Positions 2,914 to 51,500 of a DNA stretch of 64,000 nucleotides are shown here, piece after piece. Origin of the DNA: Isoetes taiwanensis (lineage: Eukaryota; Streptophyta; Lycopodiopsida; Isoetales; Isoetaceae). The stretch is from contig JAJEKV010000047.1 in the NCBI GenBank assembly GCA_021234155.1, positions 2,530,494 through 2,594,493 of the forward strand. Direction: 5' to 3'. Numbering within the stretch: position 1 is the stretch's first letter; each line of letters starts with the position of its first letter. Under the pieces are notes generated by a model. It worked only from the letters and a program-made list of their open reading frames with translations, made no database searches and was not told the DNA's origin. A program made the translations under genes and the position numbers.

Positions 2914-4558
2914 TGACCTTCTTGCATTAACACTACTAGCATCCGTGGCAACCCACTTATCCTTCTGAGGATCTAGCAAGGTGAGAACCGAGGCTGTTGT
3001 CAAAGCTTCAATGATTGGAATCCGGCTTGAACTTTGTCTTTCCAATGTGCCATCCAATCCCTAACCTTTTCATGCTTGGTTAGGTCCGTTAAGGGCGCGG
3101 CGAACTAGGCAAAGTCTTTGACAAACTTACAGTAATAACCGGCCAACCCCAGAAAGCTGCGAACCTCATACACATTGGTTGGAATCGGTCAATCCTTCAC
3201 TGCTTCAATCTTAGCTGGATCTATAGCTATCCCTTCCGCAGACACAATATGTCCCAGGTAATCAACCTCGGTGGTTGCAAACTTACACTTTGAGAAATTG
3301 GCATAGAGTTGGTGGCGCCTCAGTTTCTGTAAGGCCAACCGAAGATGCCCCACATGGTCTTCTAAGGTCTCACTGTATATGAGGATATCATCAAAGAATA
3401 TGATGACAAAATCATCAAGATATTCGCAGAAGACATCATTCATCAGCCTCATGAAGGTGGCCGGGGCATTAGTCAAGCCAAATGGCATCACAGTAGACTC
3501 ATAATGCCCATAGCACATCCGAAAGGCAGACTTGTGAATGTCATCCTCCTTAATTCGTATCTGATGATATCCCGAACGAAGGTCAATTTTTGTAAAGTAC
3601 TTAGCCCCATGCAACTGATCCATTAAATCGTCGGCACGCGGCAAAGCATACCAATTCTTAATAGTGTGCTTATTCAGTTGGCGGTAATCGATACACATTC
3701 TCAAGGTGCCATCCTTCTTCTTGACGAAGAGTATCGGAGCCCCAAAAGGTGACAAACAACCGATTTACCTGCTATGGTGACTCGGGCTCCATTGGCTGCA
3801 TTTAAGGTAACTTCTCGCTTTTCACAATCAATGTTGGCCTTGGTAGCAGCCAGGAACTCCATCCCCACAATGAGATCATAGCGACCAATATCCATTATCT
3901 CCGCGCCTAGAGCAACAGGTGCTTCTGGCAGCTGAATATTCAAATTGATGCGTCGACCTCGTGTGCGGCATATAGCCCCACTAGCCAACGTAACTGGCCA
4001 TGGCTTGGACTTCAAGGGAGTGAGCTGCAAAGACTCGGCCATTCTAGGAGATGCAAAATTATGCGTGCTGCCAGTATCCATGAGGATAAAAAAGGGCTTA
4101 CATTCTACTTGGCAAACCGTGGAAATGACAGAAGGCTGATGGTTGGCTTGGCCCGTTTCAATGGCAGCATAAATATGAGACTCACCTTGTATATAGTCAG
4201 GCGCATCATCGTCAGCAGCATTATCTGGATGGTTTGGGTCCCCTGCACTCTCCCGATCCACTTCGGCGAGGGCAGCCTGCACCGTTTGTGTGATGTAGGG
4301 GCATTCCTGCATACGGTGTCCCGGACGGAAGTACCGATAGCAAGCCTTGTCCCGACGTAACTGGTCACGAGCCTCCTTGGGAATGGCTTGGAGAATATCT
4401 CTGAAAGCTTCCGTGGTGTTGATGGACTTGTCTGGGACTGTAAAGGAGACTTTCTTCTCTGGCTTCCGATATCCGGTCGAGGCTGGAGGCCCCGGACTAG
4501 GCGAACGCCCTCTGTAAGGTGCATATCCCTTGTTCTGAATAGATACCTGGAACATCAC
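2914..4558 (-). pseudogene. Ty3/gypsy gag end, protease and reverse transcriptase
   Basis: Reading leftward: a Pro/Ser-rich gag end, a zinc knuckle CYRYFRPGHRMQEC in which Tyr replaces the second Cys, an aspartic protease with FILMDTGSTHNF, then reverse transcriptase starting [15 protein letters not shown], with [23 protein letters not shown] and the catalytic [11 protein letters not shown] is followed by the connection region (VRSFLGLAGYY) and the start of RNase H (WVATDAS). The region between protease and RT is much shorter than in intact elements, so an internal deletion is likely near 3755. Damage includes TGA for a Trp codon at about 3187, a TAG shortly after, and frameshifts near 3000 and 2930. 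It is an inactive copy; the 5' LTR and most of gag are not visible beyond 4558. Confidence 0.92.
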
Positions 4559-4829
4559 ACTATACTTGCAATTTTATATTGGTGTGCCCTGCATTGATCA
4601 AGTTCATGTAATCTATATACATCACATGTGCAAGTGCAATTCTTCGGATGTTTGGTTCTCATCCCATTGAGTCCATCCACTAGCATTTGCATCCTCACAT
4701 GTTGAATGCAACAGCAACTATTAAAATCCTTAAATTTCACAACAAACCAAGGTTTTAGCTTCTCAAAAGCTCGAAGATGAATCTTAATTTGTGGATGTTG
4801 GTCATTGAACACTAAACTATTAGGATGTA
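4559..4829. other. No gene seen
   Basis: This stretch right of the gypsy remnant shows no LTR end, primer-binding site or coding similarity that I can support. It grades into the CA-rich block. Confidence 0.4.
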
Positions 4830-9880: not shown

Positions 9881-12401
9881 ATGTCGTTGGTTAAAGAACC
9901 TCGTAGTGTTACAAAGGATGATATAGGAAACTTGTCACTTCATTGGTCCCATCTTGCAATTTATAGAAGAATTGGCATTGATGACATGGGGTACTTCAAT
10001 GGAGAGATTTTTTCAATGAAGGAGTTGAATCAAAACAATAACTTGTTTCATCATGTGCTTGCTTCACGTGAGAAGTTGCCACTACAGGATACCAGGCACT
10101 CTAGATTTAGGCTGGAGAGATCCGTCACCATGTGCAATTCGAGTTGCTCATTATTATGGAGTCAACGTCGACAATGAGCTTGTTGGCTTGGTATTGCCAC
10201 TATGTGGATCCTGACAAATTAAGGGACAAATGAGGACATCGATGATGAGGATTTTGAAGAAATAGACGTTGAAGAAGTGGATGAACGTTCATATTAGTAA
10301 GGGCTTTGGCATCTTGTTTAGCATCTACTTCCATCACAATGACATTATATCTTTCCTCTTACAGTGACTTGCCTATTTATGCAGAGTGTGGCTCAAAAAC
10401 TGTCAAAGATTCCATCTTCAAGGATTACAAAAAGAAGAGAAAAGAGATGTTATTATATAGAGGGTGAAGCAACATCTAGGTGATGTTATCTACTATGAAC
10501 AGAAATTGAAAACACTTCATCATATTAAGCCTATTTTCTGATTTTGGTCTGCCATATCTAAAACTCCAAAGGAAACTCTATCCTTTCTGCTATTTCTACA
10601 ATGAAATTGGAGGGATACTGTGAAGAACTCTTGAAGGAAAATCCAGGAAGCATAGCATTTGTTCAGAAGTCTTGTGAGGATCGTTTTCTTCGAATTTTTG
10701 TTGCTTATAATGCTAGTTTGAAGGGCTTCGCTTTTTGCAGACCAGTAGTAGGTTTGGATGGCACACATTTGAAGGGACGGTATCTTGGTATACTTCTAAC
10801 AGCCACAGCAATAGATGGAAATGATGGATTATTTCCAATTGCTTTTGCCGTAGTCAATGCTGAAAATGATGATAATCATTAGAGGTAATTTGAGATCTCA
10901 TTTTGTCCCATTAAGGGATGCTTAAAAAGCCACATCAGCTTTTTAAACTGTCCAATAAGAGAAGAGCTCCAGTGTATTTTATTCCAGTATTATGTGGCAG
11001 CAGTAATTAATGCAGTTCTAACTAACTTTTGCAGTGTCATCTTTCTACTATAACTTTTGATCAAAAACTCCGATTCGAACACTATTTGTGGCAATGGATT
11101 CGTCTCCTCAAGATCTTTCTAATGACAACCCATTGTTATATCTTTTGGGATGTAAATATATAAGAAAAGAGCAAAAAACCATATTTTTTAAGGTTAACAC
11201 AAATGGCTTGTATCGAAATACATCATAACCATATATCACTTGAAAGATCTTTTCATTCTGCATCTAATGCAACAAACGCCGCAGCATTTTCATGAGTAGA
11301 TCAAAAGTTATAGGGAAAAAACGACAGCAATGAAGTTGTTAATGCTGCATTAATTGCAGTTTGATGTAGAGTACTCATTCTATTGGAGGATTCTTATGGG
11401 GACAAAAGGAGATCTCAAATTACCTCTAATGTGGGTATGGTTCCTTCAAAACTTAAAGAATTGTATGCATCATATGCAACAAGTTACCTTCATTTCAGAT
11501 AGGCAGAAAGGTTTGGTGGAGGGCGTTGAGCTTATTTTTGGGCCTGAAGTTCCTCATGCTTATTGTTTGCGTCATCTGGCTGACAATTTTAGGAGGGTCT
11601 TCAAGAGTACATCACTTGTTAATTTGCTATGGAATGCAGCACGTGCCAATACTGTAGAGGGATATGATGAGGTTGCGGGCCGCTAATGCTCAAGCTACCA
11701 TTTGGATTCTTGCTGCAGCTGATCCTGTTCATTGGGCAAACTCAAAATTCAAGGGACAGAGGTATGGTCATTTAACCTCTAATATTGCAGAATCTCTGAA
11801 TTCTTGGTTGCGTGAACCTAGGGAGTTGCCTATACTAGCTATGTTGGAGTTAATCCGACATAAGCTAATGACATGGTTCCTAGACCGCCGGCGTGAAGCA
11901 GGTTCAGTCATAATGGAGGCAGGCCAGTATGCACATTTGGCATTAACTCCTCGTGCTGAGCGTGATGTGAAGAAAGCATGTGACCGTGGACGCTCATGCC
12001 GTATTATTGCAGCATCAGAATCTGAGTATGAGATATTGTCATCAAAATCTAGGATTGTTGATTTGAGGATGAGAACGTGCTCTTGCAATGAATGGCAACA
12101 AGAGGGTATTCCTTGTGCCCATGCAGCATGTGCAATACTATATAGGAACGAGCGTGTCCAGAGCTATGCACACCAAGCTTTTCTACTCACTTCCTACTCT
12201 ACAACCTATAGGGAGATCATGCACCCTATTATTGTTCCTACTGTTCTAGGTACGATGTTGCCTCCAGCAACAAGGCGACCTCCAGGGCGCCCAAGGACGA
12301 AGAGGATTCGTAGGGGTGAAGAAGAGGTGAAGGAAATTCATCGCTGTGGTAGATGCAAGGGAAGGGACCATAATTCACGGACATGCAGAGCACCTATCTA
12401 A
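9881..12401 (+). pseudogene. MuDR-like (MULE) transposase, interrupted
   Basis: The conserved part starts near 10601 with ANPG-like ENPGSIAFV, then GLDGTHLKGRYLG carrying the first catalytic Asp and FPIAFAVVNAEN. The frame then breaks at the MITE (10882-11426) and resumes as WVWFLQNLK, FISDRQKGLVEGV (second Asp), AYCLRHLADNFRR (CxxH motif) and, after a one-base frameshift near 11670, SNIAESLNSWL with the likely catalytic Glu. A SWIM zinc finger CSCNEWQQEGIPCAHA, a basic AT-hook-like RRPPGRPRTKR and a CCHC knuckle CGRCKGRDHNSRTC complete the protein, with the stop at 12399-12401. Upstream, 9881-10177 is open but not recognisable, and 10178-10600 is degenerate. Order and spacing fit plant MURA proteins. 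The copy cannot make a full transposase, yet outside the breaks it is well preserved. Confidence 0.9.
10882..11426. mobile_element. MITE with about 30-bp terminal inverted repeats in the MULE transposase
   Basis: The left end (10878-10909) and right end (11399-11430) are inverted copies over about 32 bases with one mismatch; the outer part reads GAGGTAATTTGAGATCTC. TA flanks both ends (10880-10881 and 11427-11428), consistent with a TA target duplication as in Tc1/mariner-type Stowaway MITEs, although the terminal sequence is not the classical Stowaway one. The interior of about 545 bases is AT-rich and non-coding. It interrupts the transposase between AENDDNH and WVWFLQ, so it arrived after the MULE. 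Confidence 0.88.
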
Positions 12402-15029: not shown

Positions 15030-17919
15030 GATAATCTGACCAAAAGGATTCTCAAAGCTTGATTCTTCAAAGAGAGAGACTGGTGCACAGTTTTTTTCTT
15101 CAGAGCTGCCAAAACGAGAAGGCTAGCTACATCTCTTCAGTCTCTACAGATTCAGGATGGGCTTGTTGTTTCAGATCCAACTGAGGTTAGAGGCTTTTTG
15201 CACAATCACTTTTCTGCTTTCTTCACTGCTCAGCGTGTTCCCTTTCAGTCAGATTTTCAAGAGGCCTTGCTTGCTAAGGCTCATCTTATAGTCACCAATG
15301 AGCAAAGGGCCGCTTTAGAGGCTGTGGTCAACCAAAATGATTTAGCGGAGGCCACATTTTCTCTCAAGAAGGGCAAGTGTCCGGGTCTTGATGGCATTCT
15401 GGTGGAATTTTTCCAGGATATTGGGATTGGCTCGGTGCAGATGTATATGATGCTTTCCGGGATTTTAAAAGACAGAGGCACCTAGACAAAATCCTCAACT
15501 CTGGTTGTATCTCCCTTATTCCAAAAGGTAAAAATCCCTCTTCCATTTCAGATTGGCACCCCATTACCTTGTTATCCTCAATGTACAAGATCTTTGCTAA
15601 AGCTTTTGCTCAGAAGCTTTGTGGCGTGCTTACTGAATCCATCTTTTCCACACAGTCAGGTTTCTTGCCTCGCCCGTGTATCTTGAATAATGTGGCAGCA
15701 GTATATGAGGGTCTCTATCGGGCTAGAATGCATGGTTATCCCATTGTGTACTTGAAGCTGGACTTTGCAAAATCATATGACAGTGTTGACTGGAGTTTCT
15801 TGGAGCAGTGCCTCCTACGTTTTGGTTTTGATGCCCAGTTCACAACAGACGTTATGAAACTTCATTATTCTGCTTATTCTTCAGTTCTTTTCCAAGGGAA
15901 ACTATCGACATTTTTTAGGTGGGACGTGGCATTCGCCAGGGCTGTCCTTTGGCACCGCTGCTTTTTGCAATTGTGGCAGAGATTCTTTCTCAGGTATTCT
16001 CTCTTGCAGTGCAGGAAGGCATCTTGCATGGTCTTCCCATGAATAATGGTTCACACGAGATTTGTAATCAGTACGCAGATGACACTTTCTTATTCTTAAT
16101 GGCTGATGAGCAGAATTTGCAGAATGCCATCCCCTTGTTGGACAGTTTCTCTTTGGCTTCTGCTATCTTTGTGGGATGGCAAAAGTGTACTGCCTTATGG
16201 GCCCTAGACACTCCAATGCCATCTTTTGTGGTTGCATTTCCATGGAAAGTGCTTCCTCATGGAAAGGCAACTAGGATTCTGGGCATTCCAGTTGGTATAC
16301 ACCTCTCATCTGGAGACGCGTGGGATGTTATTATCAAGGGGTTGGAAAGGCATTTGTTTTGGTGGTCCACGGCTAAGTTATCCATGTCTGACTGCGTAAC
16401 TGTGGCAAAGTCAGTTCTGAGTAGTACACATGTCTATATGGCATCCATCTTGCTGGCATCGCAGGCAAAGATGCAGCTCATTGTTCGTACTGTCAGGAAC
16501 TTTATCTGGGGTGGTACTGAAGAAGGAGCTGATATTAAAATTAGTTGGGCGAAGTTCATTATGCCTAAACTTTGTGGGGGGGCTGGGAATGATTCACTTT
16601 CTTCTCCAAAGCAAGGTGCTGATTTCTATGTTCATATGGCAGATTCTAAATAATGCTGATAATTCCCCAGGGCTGCGTCTCATTCACTAGTCTTTACAGA
16701 TGTGCATTTCCTTTGGTTCTCCATCCATTACGCCACTCCTCCCATAGGCATTATTCTATCCACTTTCTCCATATCCTAATGCCTCTCCTTTCCTCAAGGG
16801 ATTGCTAGCTGTTTGGGAGATTGTTCGCACTTTGTTTCAATTCCATCCGATGGCCCACACAGATCCTACAGCCAGTTGCTGGTGGATCCCTTTGGGTGAG
16901 GGCCAGGCAGATTGTCCCTTGGTCTCTTCTGTCCATCCATTGAGGCAGCATCGATGGCGAGCAGCGGGTGTGCTCACAGTATATGCATGGTATAATGAGA
17001 CAAGATTGTTGACATGGAATGAGTTCAGATTGAAGTTCCTCCTCCTTCGTTGGGACCGCTTCATTTGGGAAAAAGTAGCTGCTACTCTTCCTCCACATCC
17101 ACAAGACGTGGCTCCCCAGCTCTGGGTGGTTCATGGCAGTGTTAAGGAGGAGCACCTGGTGCACTCGATGTATGTGGTCTTGCTTCATCCTGAAGTGTTC
17201 CCATCGCCAAAGTGGCCTTTAGTTATCCCTGAGCCTCATCGAAAAGTAGTCTGGCGATGGGTATGGGATAAATTGCTCCATCCTAAGCTATCTATCTTGT
17301 GGTGGCAGATCATTCATAGATGCATGCGGGTAAACACTGTTGTTTATAGATTTCGTCAAGAAGTCTCTGTGATCTGCCCTCTTTGCATGCATCGGAATGA
17401 GACAATTGAGCACTGCTGTTTCTTGTGTCAGCATGTTCGACTTGCTTGGCAGTGGCTTTTGAGCCTTTTCCATTGTGACTTGAATAGTCAACAAGTCCTA
17501 TTGTCAGTCTATCCTAGTTCTTTGGACAAGTTGGCAAAGAGAGTTTTCCACTTACCATCTGCTTGGATCATCTGGTCCATCTGGAAGAGATGAAATCTCC
17601 TCATCTTCAAGGGACAGGTCTTTTCAGATATGCAAGTGCTTAATGACGCGTATAGTCGCATTGTAAAGGCGTATAAGTGTTCTTTCTTAAAGGATGACAC
17701 CAAGAGTGTCATTTGGGAGCAATATCTTCAGATTTAGGCTTACTCATAGCAAACAGTTGTGCTTGTGGTGATATGTATTCTCTACTTTTCTGTGTTATGT
17801 ATGTGGTGGGTAGTGTTGCTCTAGTGGACATCTTCTCTACTGGGTTTTGAGTCCTCCATGTACTCTTTGTATTCTTTTGAGTAATAAAGGTCTACGTTCA
17901 TCCACAAAAAAAAAAAAAA
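15030..17919 (+). pseudogene. L1-type LINE ORF2 (RT and zf-RVT), 5'-truncated
   Basis: Coding similarity starts near 15060 with the linker after the endonuclease (FFRAAKTRRLATSLQSLQIQ), then KKGKCPGLDGI, ISLIPKGKNP, DWHPITLLSSMYKIFAKAFA, a QSGFLPRP motif, LKLDFAKSYDSVDW, GIRQGCPLAPLLFAI and the catalytic YADDTFLF at about 16072. Downstream are the thumb region and a zf-RVT domain, WDKLLHPKLSILWWQIIHRC then CPLCMHRNETIEHC, ending near SIWKR. A TGA at 17591-17593 replaces an Arg codon, and the natural stop seems to be at about 17734. Frameshifts occur near 15480, 15925 and 16580. The endonuclease is missing. AATAAA at about 17883 and a run of 14 A at 17906-17919 mark the 3' end. It is related to, but in a different family from, the LINEs at 23899 and 26251. 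Confidence 0.92.
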
Positions 17920-23887: not shown

Positions 23888-25581
23888 GAATTACCTTGGT
23901 TTTTTTTTTTGAAGAACGTGTTTTACTTCATATTATACACTCAACATATTACAAAGTACTTCCAGAAGTAAGAAATGTCCCTGAAGCATCAATCACTTTT
24001 AGAAGATCACTCCATATTGGAAATTTAATACGATCAGGCCAATTGGAGATCTGAAAGCAATTATACAACTTCTTACGAATTTCTTGAAGCACCACCTGAG
24101 AAGAAATACGCTTATCATAAAAGACCTTTCTTCGCCTTCGCTTCCATACACTCCATATTAGCCAAGACTTTGCCATGTGAAATGCAATCCTTTTAGAAGC
24201 AGTCCACTGATTTGGATAAATACCCAAAAGAAAGTGCCGACTATCCAAAGATACTCCAAAAAGAAAATGCAGCCAGGACCTAAGACTACTCAGCTCTGCA
24301 CACAAATATAAACAGTGCTCCAATGTTTCAATGCATCGCTCACACATTGGGCAAAGTGGGCTTACTCCAGGCTTAAAGCGATGAACCATCTCATTAACTC
24401 TCAAAGAGCGATGAATCACCTGCCAAAGTAGAACATTTACCTTTGGAGGATTATATTTAGACCAAACAAGGTTCCAGATGGATTGCCATTGAGAAGGCAA
24501 AGTCTGTAAGTGCCATTTTCGAGAGGGTGGTAAAGTACTGGAGGAGGTAAGCAATCTGTAGCATGAACTTACTAGCTTCTTGCCTTCTTTAATACCTTGA
24601 ACAAAGTTCCAGCATCTCTTGTCACCAACCTTCTTAATTAAAGGAAGAGCACTTGCTACATAAGCCCATATACTGATATCTTTATCCAACAACCCATATT
24701 TCTCCTGAAACCATTGCCAAGGAGCAATGTCAATACCAAAATACCACTGTTCAATAGAAATAATACCTGCTCTCCTCCACCTCGCTTGAGAATGCGCATG
24801 CATAAATTCTACAACTAGGTGTAGTTGTCCATGAGTATACAAAGGCAACCACAGAAAGGGGGAAGATGCCTGGAGACAAGCTTCCCAATCAAATGTAATC
24901 ACCTGCTGGACTACCTTCCAGGCCCGAAGCAAGCCTTTCAGTACTGGAGAGGCATGTGAATAAGCTTTCAATGGATATAACAATGCCCAAGGGAGCTCAA
25001 TTCTCACACCTCGCTTATGAAAAACCATACACTTCTTTACTGATTGTTTAAGTAACTTCATACACGGTGATGCACAATCATCTTTCAACAAAGCCCGAAC
25101 AATAGCTTAGAAGCTAAGACCTTACCCAGAAAGAAAGATCCAACATACCAAGTCCTCCTTGTTGTTTAAACAACATACATTTCTTCCACGCCACCTTCAC
25201 AGTGCCTCCTTGATCGGTACACCAGACAAAATCTCTTACAATCTTTTTTATCTCTGCAAACTTAGAAGCTGGAGCCAATAGAACCGAAACCAAATAAATA
25301 TGCGTATTGTTCAATACTGACTTAGCTACTTGAATTCTACCTGCCAAGGATAACTTTGAACCTTTCCACCAAATCAGTTGCCTTTGTAAATTTAAGATAA
25401 TTTCATCCCATGGTTCATTCATGTCAATATCTAGACCAAAAGGGACTCCTAGAAGCTTTGTCTTTGCAGATGGTACAACAACCTTCCAGGCATACTCATA
25501 TAAAAAATGCGGAACTGCTTCCTTCCCCACCCATAAAGCACTACACTTAGCCCAATTAAGGAGACAACCAGAATTACCTTG
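23888..25581 (-). pseudogene. LINE copy A (late RT and zf-RVT), flanked by an 11-bp target duplication
   Basis: The element proper is 23899-25570, flanked by GAATTACCTTG on both sides (23888-23898 and 25571-25581). Its minus-strand poly(A) is the T run starting at 23900, so this is a 5'-truncated insertion made by target-primed reverse transcription. It encodes the part after the catalytic site (CLLNWAKCSALW, LGVPFGLDI, WWKGSKLSLAGRI, FVWCTDQGG), then after a frameshift and stop near 25100 a 380-codon frame to 23949 with VWSKYNPPKVNVLLWQVIH and the zinc motif CPMCERCIETLEHCLYLC, then WLIWSVWKRRRRKVFYDKR. The RT catalytic region and endonuclease are absent. Over the shared region it is nearly identical to copy B at 26251-31344. 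Confidence 0.92.
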
Positions 25582-36815: not shown

Positions 36816-39399
36816 AAAGCTAGATCCTTAGTGAGTCCTAACCTCAAATAGGTTTTATCCCATGGCCAGTAACAACTAACAACCTGTTGCAACAACTAAT
36901 CGTTAAGAACAAATATTCTTTGCATATTCACTTTAAAGTAACAAATTTGATTGGCTGGGTGCGAATATTCTAAGAATATTTGTCCATCCAATACATCAAC
37001 GAAGTTTTGCACTTGGGCAATCCAAAAAACCATATCCTTTATTTTACCTGAACATTCGGTTTCTAGTTATGATCTGTTTAGAATTATTCTATCTAAAATG
37101 CCAGTTGAGCAGTTGCCAAATTACGCATTTGTTTCAAAAATAAATACATTCCATTTATTATCCTCAGATATTTGTTTGGTGATCTACTTGTAGAAGCTGG
37201 AGCATGGAGAGGCCCACCTGGGTATGATCATGCTAGCGCGCATTGCTGAAGTGGGCACACAACATGCTTGCAAGGGCGGTGTGTAACTTATCTAGCTTCA
37301 TTAAACATGCAAAAAGGGATGTGTACAAATATAAAATGTATGTGCATTGCCTTTTTCTCAAACCTTGGGTCTAAAATGAAGGCAAGATTCGTGCTTTTTG
37401 TAGTCATTTTCAACATTCTATTTTCTATTCCATTAGCACCTCTAGTGGCCTTTGTTGTAATGTGGGTGATCTGACCACCTACTCAAAAGCATATCACCAT
37501 ATTATTAGGCATGCACGGAATTCTCTTTCTGCATAGGGTCCACGCCATTCTTGGTTATCTCTTGGTTGTTGTAAAGTTGATCAACAATTAAGGATAGACC
37601 ACATATTATAAGAACGTAAACAATTTAAATATATATGGTTCCTTGTTATGCTAAAGAATTTGTTCTTTTAACCTAGATAAATTGGCCCTTTCCTTCATCA
37701 TGATTGGTGAAACTCAAGCCTCAGATTCTCAATAAATTATACATACAGAAGATCTTGCCTTTTGGAAAGAAGATTATATACTGGCCTTTATATTGAACAC
37801 ATGTACGATGACCCCAAGTCAAAGGGCCACAGAGGATAAACATTAGAAGGATTTCATGTCTGCCGCAACAATTAACCGCAACAATTTGCTAGGAGAGAAC
37901 AATTGTCATCATCCACACTACATTCTGATGCGGAACCTACCATGTGGCAAGCTGAATAGTATACCCACTAAATATTAACATCATATGCTATCCATAACTT
38001 GATTAGTGTACTGTAATAAGAAGATATGCAGACAGGCATTAACACAAACAAAATTATAGTTATGAAGGGAGCAGCACGCGGAAGTGATAAACAAGCATGA
38101 TTATAATATTAAAGCGACAAGTATAAATCACGCTACATGCATTCTGTATGGTGAAAACGAAGGCTGCTACTGCGACTGCTAGGGTGACTTACTAAAAGCA
38201 ACAGGAACGGCTAGTGGTTCCGTTTGACTCGAAATCAATAGGTCTAGCGAGGAGAAGGTTGAAGAGGGCAATAACTGCAAGGTGAAACGGATCGATCTAG
38301 CCAGGAGGAGGTTGAAGGGAGCTATAACTACAAGGGAGCAACAATGGTTGCAAGCTAAAGGCATTATTTCATCAACATGGCAAAATGTGTGGAAGTGTTG
38401 AAAGTAAAGGCAACATTAATCACCACGAAGAACCTGTGTTTTTCTTATATTCAATATCAATAACTAATCTATTTAATTCCTTTTCGTCACCATGGTCATG
38501 TGACAAGTCTTCTTCATACCTTTGTCCTCTGCAACCCTAAATTTTGCCCTAAATCTAGACCCCGCACTATATTCCATGGTCTAGCCTAAACCCTAATCTG
38601 GACGTAGTCCATTTCCCTGCTGTCTCTCTCGGGCCGGCTATGGCCTAGACACGGCATTTAAGACTGTGATGGACTCCCCCCTGTACAAAACAAAGGGGCA
38701 AGCTGCATGGGCTATGGCGAATGACGGATCCCATAGGACCCCTTTTAGGATTTTTACCAGTTGATACCGAGGTAGCCCAAAAAACTGCCCTTGTCGGACC
38801 GCCGCTGCAATCACGGGTATGTCTATGACTGGGTCATTCATTCTCTATCCTTAGGCTTTTCGGTTTTATCATCCATAGCAGCAAGCATAATGTACTAGGG
38901 TTTTGTCATGTAATGGTAACATGTTTTTTTCTAGTAATAAAATACAAAAAAGATAGAGCTTTGCACACCTCTGCATGACTTCAGAGTTGCCAGTCCAAAG
39001 AATAGGCTCATGGCTTGGAGAAGCTTGGAGCCTTGTGCTTATATGATAATGAAATCATGTGAATGCATGTCAGACACAAGGGTTTACATGCGTTGTAGTA
39101 TTGTACCGAGAATTTACAGTTATATATAATATGATGATATGGATCATCATAATTTAAAGCTCTATCACGAAATCTTGCATCTCTGCAGCTTCATGGCCTC
39201 TTGAGTCCTTGATGCTGAAATGCAGGAATAAGACAGGCTAATGGTTGTGTGCAAATGCTCATAAAGGTGGCTACTGTGTTGAAAAACTAGTCTTTCTAGT
39301 TTGGTACCATGTAGCTTTGTTGTGCTAATGACAAATTAAATTTGGCATTTATGCCATGTGCAGGACTTCTTTTTAAACAGTTTTTAAGCACCACCTGGT
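36816..39399. other. Long stretch without a recognisable gene
   Basis: About 2.6 kb. A 67-codon minus-strand frame at 38638-38841 (DIPVIAAAVRQGQFFGLPRY and on) is protein-like but unrecognised. At 38220-38345 there is an inexact repeat of GAGGAGAAGGTTGAAG and GAGGAGGTTGAAGGGAGC. Nothing else is supported. Confidence 0.35.
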
Positions 39400-39840
39400 C
39401 TGGATCTTTCTTCTGGGTATTTAAGTTGCGCTGTTGGCTTAGCGTGTTGAAGGTGCACATGTCTAGTTATAGAAGATCAAAGCCACCGATTGTGATTGTG
39501 GACCAAGACTTGGCCCTATGTGCAGGTTGTGTTTTCCAAAAAAATTACAGACTATATATTGACTTTGCATCTTCTCAAAACAGAAGCATCCTCTTTAAGG
39601 GTGGAAACCAATGGACAATTTTTGTTTTACATTTTTGGTTTTTTCTTATAGGCATAATGTTTTTACGACTTGAACGTGTAAAGACAATGGTTTATGTGGA
39701 CCCTTCTGATTGGAAAAGTCAAGGGATGCATGGCAGGGAATGACCATCAGAATCTTGGTGTTCTTGCTTCATCTGGAGAAGTATATGCTTATGGCTACAA
39801 GTATTTCTGTTGGAATCTCTCTGATAGGCACATTTTTCCC
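39400..39840 (+). pseudogene. Small fragments resembling FAR1/MULE transposase and an RCC1 repeat
   Basis: Near 39455-39535 the plus strand encodes SSYRRSKPPIVIVDQDLALC, which resembles the second catalytic Asp region of FAR1/MULE proteins (a K-P-x-x-I-x-x-DQD pattern). About 200 bases further, near 39738-39820, another frame encodes NLGVLASSGEVYAYGYKYF, which resembles one RCC1 propeller repeat (G-E-V-Y-A-x-G). Neither is long enough to be sure. They may be gene fragments collected by a transposon, or chance matches. Confidence 0.25.
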
Positions 39841-41023
39841 TGTGAAACCTGAACCCTGAACACGAATGCTAGACGACAGCAACAGAAGTTGCATTGGTTC
39901 ACCACGTCTTACAAAGAGTTAACAAAATAACTGTCACAGAATCTGCTTGTAGCAGAGTACAACCTGACAAAAAAGTTGCTCTTGGTAGTTTCAATGGGCC
40001 TTTCACTCATTTTTTCACATTACGACTTCTATCCTCAAACAATCAGGCTAAATCTGTCCAGTTTCTTATCAGACGGCTAATTGCAGCTAAAAACAAAAGA
40101 AAGTAAGTACCAAAATGGATAAACAAATGCTTTAGCATACTGCAAGCAAATGACTAGGGGAGTTATGGTACAAATAAGTCATAGACTGAATCCCAGAAGC
40201 ATGAAAAACTCTCAATTGTCTTATTGAAGAATAAATTGCACATTTGAATGCGTGTTAGAAAATTCTGCCATCAGTTTCTATATTATATTCAACAAAGAAT
40301 GAAGACAGCAACCAGGGTAAAAAGAAAACAAAAAGGAGTGGAATACCTTACTCTCATAATTCATTTGATCTGGTGTATATAATTAATGGACCCGATTACG
40401 GATCTTACCCTTCTCTGAAGGAAAAGTAGTCTGACAACAGAGACAACAACAGACAACGTGATATCGTGGCTATATACTTCTCTCTTGAATAAGAGAAGCG
40501 CTGTTGACATTAATGAATAAAATCAGCAGCGTTTCAAAAAAACCTCAGAAATTATCATCCTTCCAAAAAGAGACTGTTAATAAGATCTGCAATTGAACCA
40601 TGTAAATGTATTCTGCATCATTTTTTCTGTTCAAAAAGGGCCATACAAGAGCACTCTTTCTAAAGCAAACCAAAGGGTTCATATCTCTGATCCCCTTGAC
40701 TCATTCATTCAAACTAGATTTCAGCCAAAAGGCAAGGCCTGATCCATCAATGCAACTGTTGCTATGTCAAAAATCCAAAAGAAAAAAACAGAATTGGCCT
40801 ATAATTTGCAGCCAATATGTTTATAATCTGCGCCATGGCAGCCTCGACCTGTACATCTTCTCTTCATATACATATTAAGATCACTAAAGGACTGAGCAAT
40901 TCTTAACTTTGATCTGAAGCAAATTTGAGATCTTCAAACTAGTGTGTGCAAACTTCTCCCTAGTCATGCATATTTCCTCTGATATGTGATCACAGGGCGG
41001 ATAATCTGCTCAGGAAGAGCAGG
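39841..41023. other. Downstream flank of the CLE gene, no gene seen
   Basis: AT-rich DNA on the 3' side of the CLE gene (which reads leftward). No canonical AATAAA poly(A) signal was seen on the minus strand in the first 150 bases below 41024. Confidence 0.4.
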
Positions 41024-41419
41024 CTATCTATTATGCAAAGGATTTGGACCATTGGGTACCAATCTTTTATAAGATCCAAAGGTTGGATCCATCGGAGGGC
41101 TGCATTCGTTCAGATCATCAATGCTACAGTCGCTGCCACCGGAAGAATGCGAGCTTTTCTTCAAATCCGGCGAAGGAGAAGCAGCAGGCTGTGCGGGAGG
41201 TGGGGATGATCCATTCCGGTGTGTATACAAGCTCTGCTTGCCTTGGCTATGGTGGCCTCTCAGAATCCGGCCCTCTGCAGAAGAAACCCAGAGCAAAAAA
41301 AGGGTAAACATGCACACAACCCACAACTTTTCAACTCCCGAATCTGCTCCTCCTTTCCGCAATGCCGTTCTTCTTCCCATTTGGGCTGCAAAATCCGGCC
41401 TCATGCAATAGCAGGCCAT
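41024..41419 (-). CDS. CLE: CLE signalling prepropeptide, 131 residues
   Basis: This intron-less frame encodes a small secreted hormone precursor. A hydrophobic segment LWVVCMFTLFLLWVSSAEG (about residues 32-50) serves as signal peptide, followed by a variable Ser/Pro/His-rich middle part, and the extreme C-terminus is YKRLVPNGPNPLHNR. The 12 residues RLVPNGPNPLHN (41030-41065) form a complete CLE motif, with Arg1, the Pro4 and Pro7 that are usually hydroxylated, Gly6, Asn8, Pro9, His11 and Asn12 all present, and only one residue after it. Known CLE peptides are cut from such precursors and bind CLV1/BAM-type receptor kinases to control stem cells and vascular development. R-type (CLV3/CLE1-like) rather than TDIF-type is indicated by the leading Arg. 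Met1 (41419) gives a long N-region; Met14 (41378-41380) gives a more usual signal peptide and may be the true start. A single motif and no frame damage point to a functional host gene. Confidence 0.9.
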   Translation of the reverse strand: MACYCMRPDFAAQMGRRTALRKGGADSGVEKLWVVCMFTLFLLWVSSAEGRILRGHHSQGKQSLYTHRNGSSPPPAQPAASPSPDLKKSSHSSGGSDCSIDDLNECSPPMDPTFGSYKRLVPNGPNPLHNR

Positions 41420-41683
41420 ACATAAATCTGCAGAGGATAATCCGGATAGAAAATTGTGCTGGAAGAATCCCCTTTTGGGCGATCAGAAGTGCCCTTTTTG
41501 AGATCGAAATGTACTCTTCTTTGACTTGAAAACCAATCAGAGGTGAGAACGGAACCCGTGATTTATGAAAAATTTCCTACTTGCAGAGCACTCCCCTGCT
41601 TCGTCTGCCTGCCTTTTCAAGCCTGATACACAACTGGTTCTAATCATAAAATTTTTTCCTGCACAGCCAGATCTAGAGCTCGG

Positions 41684-41690
41684 ATTTATA
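41684..41690 (-). promoter_or_regulatory. Candidate TATA box of the CLE gene
   Basis: The minus strand reads GTTGTATAAATCCGAGC here. A TATAAAT element at this place would put transcription start near 41655 and leave a 5' leader of about 235-275 bases before the CLE start codons. It is the best TATA match in the 400 bases upstream. Inference from sequence only. Confidence 0.4.
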
Positions 41691-42750
41691 CAACGCTCTT
41701 GCCTGCATTTGAAGCTACCCCTCTCTTTCTACCCTCCTTCAGCCTGCTACAGGAGAAAGCGGACTTGTTTGCCTTTGTAGCTTGCCGGTAGTGCCGCTGC
41801 AGTTCAAGGAATGGCTTAGAAGAAAAAAACCCATTAAAATATTTTTCGATACACCGGGCATCCCTTTGACTTTGAGTAATTTCCTCGCCTTGCTGAGTAG
41901 AAACAGTGGTGCTATAAAAAAATAGAGAGTTATTATACAAGTCTCTGCTTAGACTTTGAGCTTCCGGCAATTGCCTTACTCCTCCTCCTTATTTAATCCC
42001 CAATTGGGCGGTTCTAATTGGTGGTTTTGAAGCCTAATTCATAGACTTCCGGCAGTGGGCTGCTGTATCTTTCTTTACTCATACATCAGATTTGCGAAGT
42101 ACCCAATATGCTGGCTTTTGTATTTTTTAAATCTGATTGCTTCTACTTGCAAACTGGGTCTTCTGGGGGTGGATCAGGCTTACTGGTAGAGCCGGTTTGG
42201 GGCTATATTGCGTAGGATTGTTTGCTTGGAGACAAAATCTGCCATAGCTGATGAGGAAGAGGTGGCTGTCGGCTACTACGGGGCTTGCATGCGGGAATGA
42301 AGCTTTGGGTTTACAGGTCCGGCCGGTTTTGCTCTGCCCAAAAGCTTGCTCCGGTCCATGTCTGCCAAGCAGCTATGGCGGATAGAAAAAGGGCTAGCGC
42401 CTGCAGGAGAAACAGAGGGCCATCCCCTTCCTTTGTTTTCTAGTCCGGCGAAAAAGAGCGACAGGTCTTGCCTTGCCCTTTCTTTTGCCTTTATTCCGGG
42501 CTATTTTCGGACAGGTAAAGGCCGGTTTGTCATTCCATGATGTTATGTTTGCCTTGACTCCTAAAATAGCACCATGCATTTGTCTAAACTTTGTCAACTT
42601 GAACTTTCTGTCCTTCCACCTGTACGTCCCAGATCTAAGAGCCTCTCTTTTAGTTTGCCACGTGTAAGGACAGATCTATCCCTCATCTAATATTCTTGTC
42701 TGATTTACAACTACATGCTTATACCTATGAGTAGATAGTATTTTTTTATT
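41691..42750. other. Upstream region of the CLE gene, few repeats
   Basis: About 1 kb that is somewhat GC-richer than its surroundings and shows no transposon termini. Words around CCGGCAGTG or TGCCGG recur (near 41785, 41965 and 42048, with CCGGCCGG near 42320), which may be regulatory or chance. No second gene can be supported. Confidence 0.35.
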
Positions 42751-43999
42751 TTTATTTTCGAAAAACTGCCAAAATACCCTTACATGGGTTTCAATAATTA
42801 TCGAAAATGTCTTTACATATATTTTATTTACATATTGCCTGTTCTTATACACTGTAGAGGCAATATAGTAAGTTTAAGGGGCATTGTAGTAATTACTACG
42901 GGCATTTTAATAGTTATTTCAGATAGATTTTTTTTTTTTTAATTATTATACCACATGGCACCTTCCCATAGGAGGATATGCCAATGTTATGAGAAAGACT
43001 TGAACACAAGATGGACGTCATGTAGGCAATCTTATACAACTTGTTCGGGTTGCCATTCCATCCAACTTCATGTTGAATGTGCCTTAGTCCACTGTTTCTT
43101 GGCTATCTCTGCTCCCTACCTTCCATAGTCACCCTAGAGGGACAATGTACCAAATTCAATTCCACGTAACATCCTCATTAGATTCTCCAAGTTTGGTCGA
43201 CCTTTTGTCCATTCTTGCAGCAAAAACGACTGATCTAATGCAAGAATTGTCAACTTGATGTTGATGACATATGCATATTAGGACATCTATAATTTTATAA
43301 TAAAAATAAAACATGCGGTTAATAGCCTTTTGTAAACATTTCGGAGGAAGTTTTTTGGTCCAATTCTTTGTTCGATGTCGCGAAGGCCCACAATCACAAT
43401 GTTCACAGTTTTAAACAAGCTCTGAAAAATCCTCTTCCCACTTGTTTACTTACTAGGTCATATTCTCTATTTTTTATACTAAATTTATAAAGTTAAGAGA
43501 AGACATTCCACTCCTCATAATGTGAAAACTTGTTTCCCTCACATAATGTGTCTGGCCTCGTCAAACATGCCATTCCTATTCAAATGACATTTGTTGCCAC
43601 GTTTTGTATGTTGTTTGTTGCTAGCTTGCAAAAGGTCTAACATCATTCATAGTCAACCAACGAAGCTCACTGAGCAAGTTAACATTTGTTGCCATGTTCG
43701 ATGTAACATTTGTTGCTAGCTTGCAAAAACTCTACTATTGTTCATAGTCAATTGACGAAGCTCTTCAAGCAAGCATAACCATCATTGCCAGCTCTTAAAG
43801 ATATCTATAGCTCTGCTGGCATATCTCAAATTTTACATAAGGATTAGACAATCTACCAAACTATCCAATGGCAATTTCTGTAAAGGCAATTGTATTGGGC
43901 CCCATGAATAGACCATTGCCAGAGGCACGAACAATATTACTTAAGAGGCAACAAATTTGGTTGTTCTTTCATGTGATTGTAGTATGCTTTTGAATGTGA
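42751..43999. other. Non-coding region with a possible MITE and a tandem duplication
   Basis: At 42762-42915 the words CTGCCAAAATACCCTTA and GGGGCATTGTAGTAATTACT with GGGCATTTTAATAG are arranged partly inverted and recall the AAGGGCATTTTG array beside the MULE. At 43583-43675 and 43680-43770 two tandem units share ACATTTGTTGCCA, TTGTTGCTAGCTTGCAAAA and ACGAAGCTC. No gene is seen. Confidence 0.4.
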
Positions 44000-45358
44000 T
44001 TGCTCTCCCTTCAATATGATGCCATTTCCAAACTTGCTCAAAAGAGCGCATGACAAGGACTGACAAGGATGAGTTCTAGACCAAGCTTCCAACACCATAT
44101 TCTTCCTGTTCCTTTTTGCAACCAGTTGATAGTAGCTGGCCAATTCCATCAACCAAATTAATGGCAGCTACCATCTCCATTTAATCCAATCATACCACAT
44201 AAGTAAAGGACGCATTATATTTCAGTGACAACATGCCAACAACATACATCATGTGGTATATAGTTCACTCATAGTGAACACTAAGTTACATATTTGGCAA
44301 ACATTCCTCTCTGGAGTGGTGGACGCCAATGCCACCAATCCTCTTAGCACCTCCACTTAGTTCATCCCCTTACACAGAGATGATGTGTCCCAGCAGGTAT
44401 CGTTTCTATTTGAGCATGGTATGAAGGTGGTCTCCTCTTGTCATGGCCTAAGTTCAAACAAAAGTCCTATGCTCACAATGTGATGTAACTGTATGGAAGA
44501 AGGTAGCAGCTTGCCTCTTGTAGTGGAGGTTGATATCATGGAAAGGGTGCCTTTGAGTTGCCATGAGGATATTCACAAAGACAAGAACTTTCTCAGCTCC
44601 ATATATCATCTCCTCTTAACTCCACAACCTCTCCAATTTCTGAATGGCAATCACAGATCTCAAAATATATTTGTGCTCGTACATGGCGCTCGCTTTGCGA
44701 TAAATTGCTCCATCATAAAGTTTATGTACTTGTGACAAGTTACACATAGATGTTTCCATATAAATGCCTTGTGGCATCTCTATGATCTTCGTATTTCTGC
44801 AGTATGCCCTCTTTGGCTTTTAGATGTTGAAATACTTGAGCATTGCCTCTTCTCTTGTTTATAAGTTCAACCAGCATGGTTCTGGCTATAACGTTTATTC
44901 AATAGTATACTGGCCTAGCCAATGTGTCCTCTTGGCATCCTAACTAGAAGCATGGGCTCTAACTAGGTAGAAGGTATTTCACCTAGAATTTAATTGGCTC
45001 CTGTAGTCAATTTGGGAGCGTCAAAGGCTCTAAAATTTCCAAGGCATTTACTCATCTGCTCGTGGTGTTATTGTTGTAGCACAGGCTAAGATACTGATGG
45101 TCTATAAGTCTTCCTCCCTTGAGCAAGAAGTGAGGGATCGTATTTAGATTCAGTATGTTCAAATTAATTCTTATTATTACTCTCCTATATTGGAGTAAGT
45201 ACACAATGCTTTAGGCTCGTATTTCAGGAGCATCGTAGTACACAATGCTTTAGGCCTTTATTTCAAAAGCATTGTGTTCACACAATCAGATGAGACATCT
45301 TGTACTCTTTACTTTTGATTAATAAACTTTTTTTTAACCTTCCAAAAGAAAAAAAAAG
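44000..45358 (+). pseudogene. Decayed LINE 3' part with zf-RVT domain
   Basis: Between about 44680 and 44900 the plus strand encodes, across frameshifts, CDKLLHHKVYVL, a His/Arg-Cys segment, CPLWLLDVEILEHCLFSC and QPAWFWL, matching the zf-RVT domain of the LINE at 15030 (WDKLLHPKLSILWWQ, CPLCMHRNETIEHC). The AATAAAC at about 45322 followed by A-rich sequence to 45358 marks the 3' end. Many stops show it is old. The 5' limit is uncertain; homology left of 44300 is not clear. Confidence 0.6.
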
Positions 45359-48502: not shown

Positions 48503-51500
48503 AGCAGATGAGGGAAATAACACCATCTGGGGCAATAGATCGAGAAACAAAATTTCAAGATTCTAAAACACGCATACCAAAGCTAGGATGGGGAAGCCGG
48601 AAAAGAGGTCTAAGGGACCTAGATCAGAACATAAAGCTGACAAGGGAGAGAGTGGGGGATCAGGGAGCAAAAACGAGAGGGCAGCTAAGGAAAGGACACA
48701 CGATAGAACAACAGGGAGGCAGGGGGGTGCATTAAGGAAGGAAGAAGTAACGATCTGGTACTGGAATTGTACGGGATATCCTTGGGATGATGGAGAACGC
48801 CTAAACGAAGCACGAGACCGGGATATCATATGCCCGTAGAGACATGGGAACACAAAGACAAAGAGGCTACTGGATGAACCAAAGCTACACTTTATTCACT
48901 GTTGAGAGAAAAGAACTACAAAATAGGAAGAGGAAGCCGTATTAGCCTGCTACATTAGGAATAGCAATGATCGTAGTGCATGTATTTTGGAAAATGACAT
49001 TAATAAACGATACATGCTTATAAATGTTGTGTTGCTTGATTACAGAAATCTATATTTGCTAATAGTATACTATCCGCCCCAATGTGATAAACTGGAACTA
49101 TTAGGCATGGGAGAGATTGTCATGAGACATAGGGATAAGGGAATGCTGATCATAGTAGGGGATATTAACGCAAGGACGGGACGGGAACAATCACATAAAG
49201 CAGGGGTAGACAACGAGAGTGGGCAAAGGGACACAAAATGGAAGGGGAGGAATGGCAAATGGGACACCTGTGAGATCTAAATGGAGTTGATAGCGAGAGG
49301 AGAAACACTGATAGAGGTATATACAGCGACAGATACAATTATATGCAATGGCCTAAGAAGATGGGAGGATTCAGGCGAGTTCACAAGCACAAAAAACCAT
49401 ACGGGAGCAAAGATAGTAGACTATGTGATAGCAAATGAGGAAGCAATAAAGGAAATCGGAAAGATGGAATTAGGGGAATGGCCGCTAGGAAGGAGGGAGG
49501 GACACAGACCCATATTGCTCAAGATGAATGTGGCAAGGGGAAGAACAGATGACGAGCAAGGAAGAGGCAAACAGGCCAAAATAGCAATTAAATTCAGAGA
49601 AAACAGAGTGGGAACATTCATAAAAACGGTAAAAAAGGAAATAAAAGCAAAGGAATGGGGAGAGGGAATGAAGGACAGAGGGAATGACATGAATGACATC
49701 TTGGAAGAAGCAGCTAGAGTGGCATTCGGGAGAAGAGAAAGAGGAAGGAGGGCTATAGCATTTCGAAGGTCAGTATGGTTTGACGAAGGGTGCATGGAAC
49801 AACGAAGGAAAGTCAAACAGGCAAAAGGAACTGAGGCATACCAAGAGGAACGCAGCAAATATGTGAAAATACTGAAAAGGAAGAAAGCTCAGGACCTGAA
49901 GAACCATCAATGGGGATTGGCAGAAGACCTGAAAAGGAGACCTAAGGTATTTTGGAACAATATGAAAAAAGGCTCAAAAACAAAAGCGGATACAACAGCA
50001 GGGGAGGAGGGGAGAAGAACGGAAATAGAAATAGACTGGACAAGATACCTAGAATGGCTGTACAAAACAGGAGCTGCACCAATCATGGACCCAGAAGGTA
50101 GACACAAATCCCCCTTCTCCAAGGAAGAACTGACATGGGCACTAAACAAAATGGCGAACAATAAAGCTCCGGATCTATATGGGCTAACAGCGGAGATGCT
50201 GAAATGCGTAGGAACAGAGATAATAGGGATCATAACAAAAATATTCAATGAGGTAGTACATTCGGGTCTTCCGGAAAGATGGCAGTTTAACAAAGTAATC
50301 TCGCTCCACAAAGGAGGAAACAAGGAAGAACCGAGCAATTACAGGACTATTATGGTCAGTTCAGTATTCGCGAAATGGTTCGGAAAAATGCTGGATCAAA
50401 AACTGAAAACGTGGGCAGAAGCAGGGAAGCTCAGAGCACAAGGCCAGGCAGGTTTTCGACCAGAGTATTCGACTACGGACCATTTGGTGACCCTAAGGAT
50501 AATGATAGAGCAGACAAGGGAGAGTAACAAGAAGATCATATGTTGCTTCGTGGACTTTAAAAAAGCCTTCGACACGGTGCCTAGGGATAAGCTTCTACTT
50601 AGACTAATAGGACTAAGAGCACCAGAAGGGCTAGTAGGATCAATCGCAAGGCTATACCAAAAGGTATATGCCAAAACAGATGGGGGAGGAGAAGCCATAG
50701 AATGCGACACAGGAGTAAAGCAAGGATGTCCACTATCACCCACACTGTTTGGGATATACATAGATGCCCTACAGGAGTTTGTCAAGGAAAGACGGGGAGA
50801 CAGTGAAGCACCAATGATAGGGAAAACAAAAGTCCCAATAATGCTATATGCAGATGATTTAGGTATGATGGTGACCAAAGCCAAAGGGATGCACAGAATG
50901 CTAGAGATACTAGAGGAATTTTGTGAGGAGACAGGACTGACAGTCAACCTGGGAAAAACGAAAATAGTGACCTTCGGTACAAAGATAAAGCACAGGCCAT
51001 TTAGATACAAGGGGGAGGAACTAGAAGAAGCCACAGGGTACAGATATCTGGGATACGACCAATGTTGTTAAATACTTTGCATACCATACGGGTAGCATAC
51101 GTTTTTTAAGTTTTTTTAAAGTTTTTTATTTTTGGTTTTTAAAATCTTAGAATACGTTTTTATCTCTAATATATAATTGTAATTAGGCCGATAAGGGTGC
51201 AACTTACATATGGTGTTTTCTATGCTTAGGATTATCCACGTGTAAGCACATAAACAATTTTGAAGAATGGAGATCTTTCTAGAAGCTACGCCGGAACTTC
51301 TCTCATCTTCTAGAATCATCGATTTTACAGGTCTAGAATGATCTAGATGGTTCTCTATTGATATAAAAAGGAGGGTCGCGCAAATTGAAACCTATAGCTT
51401 AGGTTGATGGCAAGTTCGGCGAAGTTGGGCGTTTGTCTGGCAGCCATACCAGATTGGTTTTTTATTTTGGCTGTATTGGAGGGCCGAACACAAGCTCCGG

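What the first reader, a model, noticed from the sequence alone, without database searches (positions are those of the whole stretch)
41024..41419. Intact single-motif CLE hormone gene in a transposon-filled region
The frame ends in a full CLE dodecapeptide RLVPNGPNPLHN followed by one Arg, with signal peptide and variable middle region. It is the only host-like, undamaged gene in 64 kb. CLE genes are easily missed by gene predictors because only 12 residues are conserved, so this may be unannotated.
Basis: partly seen in the sequence, partly recalled or inferred. Interest (0 to 1): 0.85.

Follow-up and report, generated by a model that had tools for sequence, protein, structure and literature searches.

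The report
Intact quillwort CLE gene, transposon-copied front
This is an intact plant peptide-hormone (CLE) gene, most likely from the quillwort Isoetes taiwanensis, and its front half has also been picked up by transposon-like repeats and scattered around the genome as broken copies.

Summary
Window 41024-41419 (minus) is an open 131-codon frame ending KRLVPNGPNPLHN-R-stop: an R-type CLE precursor whose dodecapeptide is one residue from Arabidopsis CLE9/10. A computed signal peptide is plausible. The 36 residues before the motif are conserved in a second CLE locus of the same genome, independently of the motif.

Its 5' flank through codon 80 lies, whole or in most part, in at least 17 dispersed copies (F1) of a transposon-like repeat. 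Shorter pieces lie in 13 older copies (F2). None of these 30 fetched copies keeps the frame or carries the CLE motif. Relatives of the F1 element without the CLE piece, and one copy lacking a later insertion at the window locus, point to capture of the gene by the repeat. A second CLE gene shows a similar fate.

The gene is a new member of a known family, and the capture is a known kind of process. Expression, annotation status and any small-RNA effect are untested.

The parts
41024..41419 (-). CLE precursor ORF, 131 codons plus stop; reads through without an intron
   Evidence: the only full-length match in the genome is itself
41270..41419 (-). N-terminal region with signal peptide: hydrophobic core LWVVCMFTLFLLWV, candidate cleavage near SSA/EG/RILR; possible starts Met1, Met6, Met14
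   Evidence: hydropathy and a von Heijne-type score (matrix recalled; SignalP not available)
41072..41179 (-). pre-motif block (residues 81-116) conserved with the CLE locus pair L029/L037: C..DD..ECSPP..TFG
   Evidence: 57% over aa 81-130, E 1.6e-8; score 80; 0 of 500 shuffles reach it
41030..41065 (-). CLE dodecapeptide RLVPNGPNPLHN
41027..41029 (-). single Arg tail before the stop
41178..41495 (-). segment also carried, whole or in most part, by repeat family F1: 5' flank plus codons 1-80 (and two bases of codon 81); 17 dispersed copies
41192..41686 (-). stretch of which pieces occur in the older family F2 (41192-41315, 41378-41487 and, in some copies, 41545-41686), 13 loci
41789..41967 (-). 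insertion of about 180 bp in the 5' flank, flanked by an imperfect direct repeat; absent from F1 copy L011, so probably later than the capture
   Evidence: relatives at C1083 and C108
41949..42063 (-). upstream flank of the gene still present in F1 copy L011
40773..40958 (-). dispersed repeat that begins about 65 bp past the stop codon

Best explanation
The locus is a functional-looking, single-exon R-type CLE gene of Isoetes taiwanensis. Its product would enter the secretory pathway, be cut before RLVPNGPNPLHN (and lose the terminal Arg), and act outside the cell as a ligand of a CLV1/BAM-type receptor kinase; this part is inferred from the family and was not tested. Separately, a transposon-like repeat family captured about 0.7 kb of this locus (5' flank, leader, codons 1-80). 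The captured piece lost one base in the signal-peptide codons and was then spread to at least 17 places. An older capture of this gene, or of a lost paralog, gave a second broken set of 13. The copies are gene debris, not hormone genes, and the intact locus (or its ancestor) was the source.
For: Intact ORF with CLE motif. Signal-peptide-like N-terminus. Pre-motif block conserved in L029/L037. The DNA of codons 81-131 has no other match at E 1e-5 except the C1059 place, which covers only its first 27 bases. F1 copies share element sequence outside the CLE piece, and in 12 of 13 copies compared the 3' end of the element falls within one base of the same point, with different DNA beyond. Relatives of the element without the CLE piece: C1007, C1081, C907, C1036 in the search, the first three fetched and compared. 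All 17 F1 copies lack the same base of the C run at 41304, 15 by a one-base gap and 2 within a larger deletion; 15 of 17 have a premature stop and the other 2 (L005, L020) are out of frame. At two coding sites F2 has the gene's base in 13 of 13 copies while F1 differs in 16 of 17 and 16 of 16 copies with a letter, so F1 is derived there. L011 holds extra upstream gene DNA and lacks the insertion at 41789-41967. Genome identity: 1,658,258,908 bases in 1110 sequences against 1658.30 Mb in 204 scaffolds plus 909 contigs for I. taiwanensis (PMC8566536, passages).
Against: No transcript, proteome or cross-species evidence could be obtained. The signal-peptide evidence is a home-made score, not SignalP. 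Pfam gave no match. Class, terminal inverted repeat, target-site duplication and coding partner of the capturing element were not settled: only one copy (L011) showed a 21-bp inverted match to the 3' end, and 5' ends are rearranged. At one 5'-flank site F2 agrees with F1 against the gene (10 of 10 copies with a letter), so the gene has changed too. Several F1 copies differ little from one another, so selection on the gene since the capture was not tested. The capture direction rests on anatomy, not on an outgroup species. No second haplotype of the locus was seen.
Confidence: 0.85

Rival explanations
1. The CLE gene is a recent, unexpressed relic or duplicate that happens to be still open.
For: It lies among transposon remains, with dispersed repeats close on both sides. 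No expression data. No second haplotype copy was found.
Against: Open 131-codon frame with all precursor parts. Its pre-motif block is conserved with L029/L037 although the two are only 57% identical over the last 50 residues, so the frame has outlasted a long divergence. All 17 F1 copies of its own front half are out of frame.
Confidence: 0.1
2. The reverse origin: the repeat supplied the signal-peptide half, and the gene is a chimera of repeat DNA and a CLE tail.
For: Codons 1-80 and the 5' flank are the repeated part, and codons 81-131 are nearly unique. The local alignment of the window protein with L029/L037 covers only residues 81-130.
Against: F1-family elements without the CLE piece exist, and the piece is internal cargo. 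At two coding sites F1 is derived relative to F2 while the gene keeps the F2 base. L011 carries upstream DNA of this locus without a later insertion. In the fetched loci no F1 element sequence outside the shared segments matches window 38500-44500. Both precursors have the same layout: basic region, hydrophobic stretch, AE.R.L (by eye).
Confidence: 0.05
3. The dispersed copies act on the source gene in trans through small RNAs, so the gene is under transposon-derived control (compatible with the best explanation, added to it).
For: 168 of 376 21-mers of the CDS occur exactly, on either strand, in the 17 fetched F1 loci, and 26 of 376 in the 13 F2 loci plus L054. Silencing of donor genes by captured fragments is reported for maize in the review PMC13317346 (passages).
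Against: No small-RNA or methylation data. The same review says captured gene fragments are usually non-functional.
Confidence: 0.1

Closest known systems
Arabidopsis CLE9/CLE10 (RLVPSGPNPLHN) and CLE14 (RLVPKGPNPLHN); sequences from PMC5538625 (one passage)
   Same: R-type dodecapeptide identical at 11 of 12 positions to each; signal peptide, variable middle and C-terminal motif
   Different: Asn at position 5 (CLE25, RKVPNGPDPIHN, also has it, same passage); precursors outside the motif were not compared; no one-to-one orthology is claimed
CLE locus pair L029/L037 of the same genome (RLIPTGPNPLHN)
   Same: 57% identity over residues 81-130, same precursor layout
   Different: No C-terminal Arg; besides the pair, its DNA has only one 84% match over the 5' flank and the first 37 coding bases, and one 101-bp match beyond the ORF
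CLE gene L031 of the same genome (HLVPSGPDPLHNR)
   Same: Also has dispersed damaged copies
   Different: Its copies start at codon 13 or later, and the five found by the motif pattern keep the CLE motif: the mirror image of F1
Transposon gene capture (Pack-MULE, Helitron and others) as reviewed in PMC13317346 (passages)
   Same: Host gene fragment carried as internal cargo by a repeat family that has relatives without it
   Different: Element class here unresolved; the host is a lycophyte, a word with no occurrence in the main text of that review

Membership tests
CLE peptide precursor | C-terminal 12-residue CLE motif | tested here: met
   RLVPNGPNPLHN; in the motif matrix of PMC7552357 the most frequent residue at each site gives RLVPSGPNPLHN (passage)
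CLE peptide precursor | N-terminal signal peptide | tested here: met
   Best 14-residue hydropathy 2.52 and cleavage score 11.8; matrix recalled, SignalP not run
CLE peptide precursor | Variable middle region and, where present, a short tail often starting with R or K | tested here: met
   tail statistics in PMC7552357 (passage)
CLE peptide precursor | Processing, proline modification and receptor binding | not testable with these tools
   Needs peptide or plant assays
CLE peptide precursor | Expressed gene | not testable with these tools
   No RNA data available
Transposon carrying a captured host gene fragment (F1) | Host fragment as internal cargo, shared element sequence outside it, several insertion sites, relatives without the fragment | tested here: met
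Transposon carrying a captured host gene fragment (F1) | Class-defining ends (terminal inverted repeats or other) and target-site duplications | tested here: inconclusive
   Common 3' end in 12 of 13 copies; 21-bp inverted match in one copy only; 5' ends rearranged
Transposon carrying a captured host gene fragment (F1) | Autonomous partner that encodes the transposition enzyme | not tested
   No search made

The most novel reading that the evidence does not exclude
The scattered F1 and F2 copies make small RNAs that match the leader and first 80 codons of the hormone gene, so the dose of a CLE peptide in a quillwort is set by transposon debris; repeated capture of more than one CLE gene would make this a recurring route of control in Isoetes.
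Probability: 0.08. Interest if true: 0.65.

Novelty: new member of a known kind. Interest (0 to 1): 0.3.

Why it matters
[quoted passage not shown] CLE peptides act in the cambium and other meristems of seed plants (same passages), so the CLE set of Isoetes is useful to know. This gene is easily lost in annotation because it is short and because its first 80 codons are also a repeat. The captures show how a peptide-hormone gene can leave its signal-peptide half, but not its hormone, across a genome.

Tried and rejected
Pfam gave no family, and the PDB sequence search only three matches at E 0.2-0.27 without bearing on the question. Idea that the ORF is a chance frame: rejected by the motif control and the pre-motif conservation. 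Idea that the 17 F1 copies are CLE paralogs: rejected, since they share repeat flanks and frame damage and lack the motif. Idea that F1 is a Helitron or a clean TIR element: left open; by eye I saw no end typical of Helitrons, and only one copy had an inverted terminal match. Second allele of the window locus: none seen with flanking DNA at E 1e-10, so the locus is single or collapsed in this assembly, or the search missed it. Selection on the gene since the capture: not tested beyond the polarity of a few sites. Tandem repeats in window 40000-43000: none.

Literature searched: the exact dodecapeptide, 0 papers; 'CLE peptide' with 'transposable element' and 'gene capture', 0; 'CLE genes' with 'transposon', 'pseudogene' and 'captured', 0; 'Isoetes' with 'CLE genes', 1 review that names Isoetes once, for its cambium. 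Two wider searches for Isoetes or lycophyte CLE peptides listed 252 and 84 papers, of which I saw the first 20 each. The main text of the I. taiwanensis genome paper has no whole word 'CLE', 'CLAVATA' or 'peptide'; its supplements were not read. So 'not in print' is not claimed beyond these searches.

Corrected on checking: I first wrote that the shared segment covers 82 codons, after the protein match and my notes; by DNA it is 242 coding bases, 80 codons and two bases.

Full report
Observation. Window 41024-41419, minus strand, is 131 codons without a stop. It ends KRLVPNGPNPLHN, one Arg, stop. The stop-to-stop frame runs 41024-41482.

Which genome. The window lies in G000, contig C1053:2530494-2594493; G000 has 1,658,258,908 bases in 1110 sequences. 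The published Isoetes taiwanensis assembly is 1658.30 Mb in 204 scaffolds plus 909 unplaced contigs (PMC8566536, passages). The source is therefore very likely I. taiwanensis, a lycophyte. This is an inference from size and count.

Is it a CLE gene. A degenerate DNA pattern for the end of the CLE motif hits 16 places in the genome and none in the reversed control. The 16 are the window gene; the near-identical pair L029/L037 (RLIPTGPNPLHN); the near-identical pair L022/L033; L031 (HLVPSGPDPLHN) with five damaged relatives of it (L023, L024, L026, L034, L035); L025, L027, L030, L032; and L036, whose PPGPNPFHH may be chance. The window protein aligns to L029/L037 over residues 81-130 at 57% identity, E 1.6e-8. 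With the motif cut off, the alignment still scores 80, against a maximum of 59 in 500 shuffles. So the conservation covers the block C..DD..ECSPP..TFG as well as the hormone. A hydrophobic stretch LWVVCMFTLFLLWV and a good cleavage site near SSAEG/RILR give a plausible signal peptide (the matrix is recalled and SignalP was not run). The dodecapeptide differs at one position from Arabidopsis CLE9/10, RLVPSGPNPLHN, and at one from CLE14 (sequences in PMC5538625, one passage). In the motif matrix of PMC7552357 the most frequent residues give RLVPSGPNPLHN (passage). Pfam found nothing.

The front half is a repeat. A 1-kb DNA query over the gene finds, besides itself, 17 places with the segment window 41178-41495 or most of it, at 81-98% identity. 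Ten of the 17 matches end at exactly 41178 and an eleventh within 3 bases; the other six end 5-18 bases earlier. The segment is 5' flank plus 242 coding bases, that is codons 1-80 and two bases of codon 81. I fetched all 17. Copies of this family (F1) share long sequence outside the CLE piece. In 12 of 13 copies compared the 3' end of the element falls within one base of the same point, with different DNA beyond; the thirteenth (L005) stops 24 bases earlier. Related elements without the piece exist at C1007, C1081, C907 and C1036 (the first three fetched and compared). The search for the element had 3515 candidates in its first look, of which 40 were scored, so parts of it are abundant; the counts are lower bounds.

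State of the F1 copies. All 17 lack one base of a C run in the signal-peptide codons: 15 by a one-base gap and 2 (L051, L053) within a larger deletion. Fifteen of 17 meet a premature stop; L005 and L020 have no stop inside the piece but are out of frame. None of the 17 loci contains the CLE motif (13 scanned, 4).

A second set. F2 holds pieces 41192-41315, 41378-41487 and, in some, 41545-41686, at 75-94% identity per piece. I count 13 loci (8 and 5 more) and fetched all 13. All 11 copies that span it lack 41316-41377; two (L017, L056) do not reach it. The gene's start codon is ACG in 7 copies and ATG in 3 of the 10 that have all three letters. None of the 13 loci contains the CLE motif (4 scanned, 9). 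Whether F2 is a second capture of this gene or of a lost paralog is open. One further place, C1059:1253087-1253277 (L054), matches 41151-41333 at 81%, 27 bases past the F1 boundary.

Direction. Four facts point from gene to repeat. The CLE piece is internal cargo in a family that also exists without it. At two coding sites (41237, 41216) F2 has the gene's base in 13 of 13 copies, while F1 differs in 16 of 17 and in 16 of 16 copies with a letter, so F1 changed there. F1 copy L011 holds additional upstream DNA of the gene, to 42063, but lacks about 180 bp at 41789-41967, an insertion at the window locus with an imperfect flanking direct repeat and relatives elsewhere. And outside the shared segments the fetched F1 loci do not match window 38500-44500. 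Against a one-sided view, at 41489 in the 5' flank F2 agrees with F1 (T in 10 of 10 copies with a letter), so the gene has changed too. The reverse origin, a chimera built by the repeat, is kept as a rival at low weight.

Not unique to this gene. L031 has six further places at 91-97% identity that start at codon 13 or later, and 14 short matches at 76-91%. Of four CLE loci whose DNA I searched, two (window gene, L031) have many dispersed partial copies. L030 has none. L037 has its near-identical partner, one 84% match over the 5' flank and the first 37 coding bases (C1054), and a 101-bp match beyond the ORF (C980).

Function. By family knowledge the precursor is secreted and trimmed to a peptide of 12-13 residues that binds a leucine-rich-repeat receptor kinase. 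None of this was tested here. The F1 and F2 copies cannot make the hormone as they stand. They share exact 21-mers with 168 of 376 positions of the CDS (F1) and 26 of 376 (F2 plus L054), so small-RNA action on the gene is possible but no data support it. The review PMC13317346 (passages) reports such silencing of donor genes in maize and also says captured fragments are usually non-functional.

Surroundings. Of 22 other ORFs of 150 aa or more in the window I scanned 10: 7 match reverse transcriptase, its zinc-binding domain, aspartyl protease or SWIM, 1 has a match below the cut-off and 2 have none.

Verdict. An intact, ordinary CLE gene with an unusual repeat history. New member of a known kind.

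Noticed in passing
L031 (C1072:105989) and L023, L024, L026, L034, L035, C1062:211341: A second CLE gene (HLVPSGPDPLHNR) has six dispersed copies at 91-97% that lack the first codons; the five found by the motif pattern keep the CLE motif. 14 shorter matches at 76-91% also exist.
   Followed up: partly
L029 (C1056:2071471) and L037 (C1104:3213779); L022 (C941:9557687) and L033 (C1073:4413841): Two pairs of CLE loci are 98-99% identical over 3 kb: leftover haplotypes or recent duplications.
   Followed up: no
L012:4378-6999: Units of about 1.02 kb seem to stand head to tail beside an F1 copy (matches to L013).
   Followed up: no
L038:4269-5818: Inverted duplication of the 5' part of the F1 element (97% over 675 bp), and a segment of about 98 bp that is inverted between copies.
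   Followed up: no
window 3189-4573, 11658-12401, 15392-16653, 23949-25106, 49281-51071: Reverse-transcriptase, aspartyl-protease and SWIM-zinc-finger ORFs of transposable elements (assignment to LTR, non-LTR and Mutator-like elements is recall).
   Followed up: no
L054 (C1059:1253087-1253277): 81% match to window 41151-41333 that runs past the F1 boundary; perhaps a third derivative or an old paralog.
   Followed up: no
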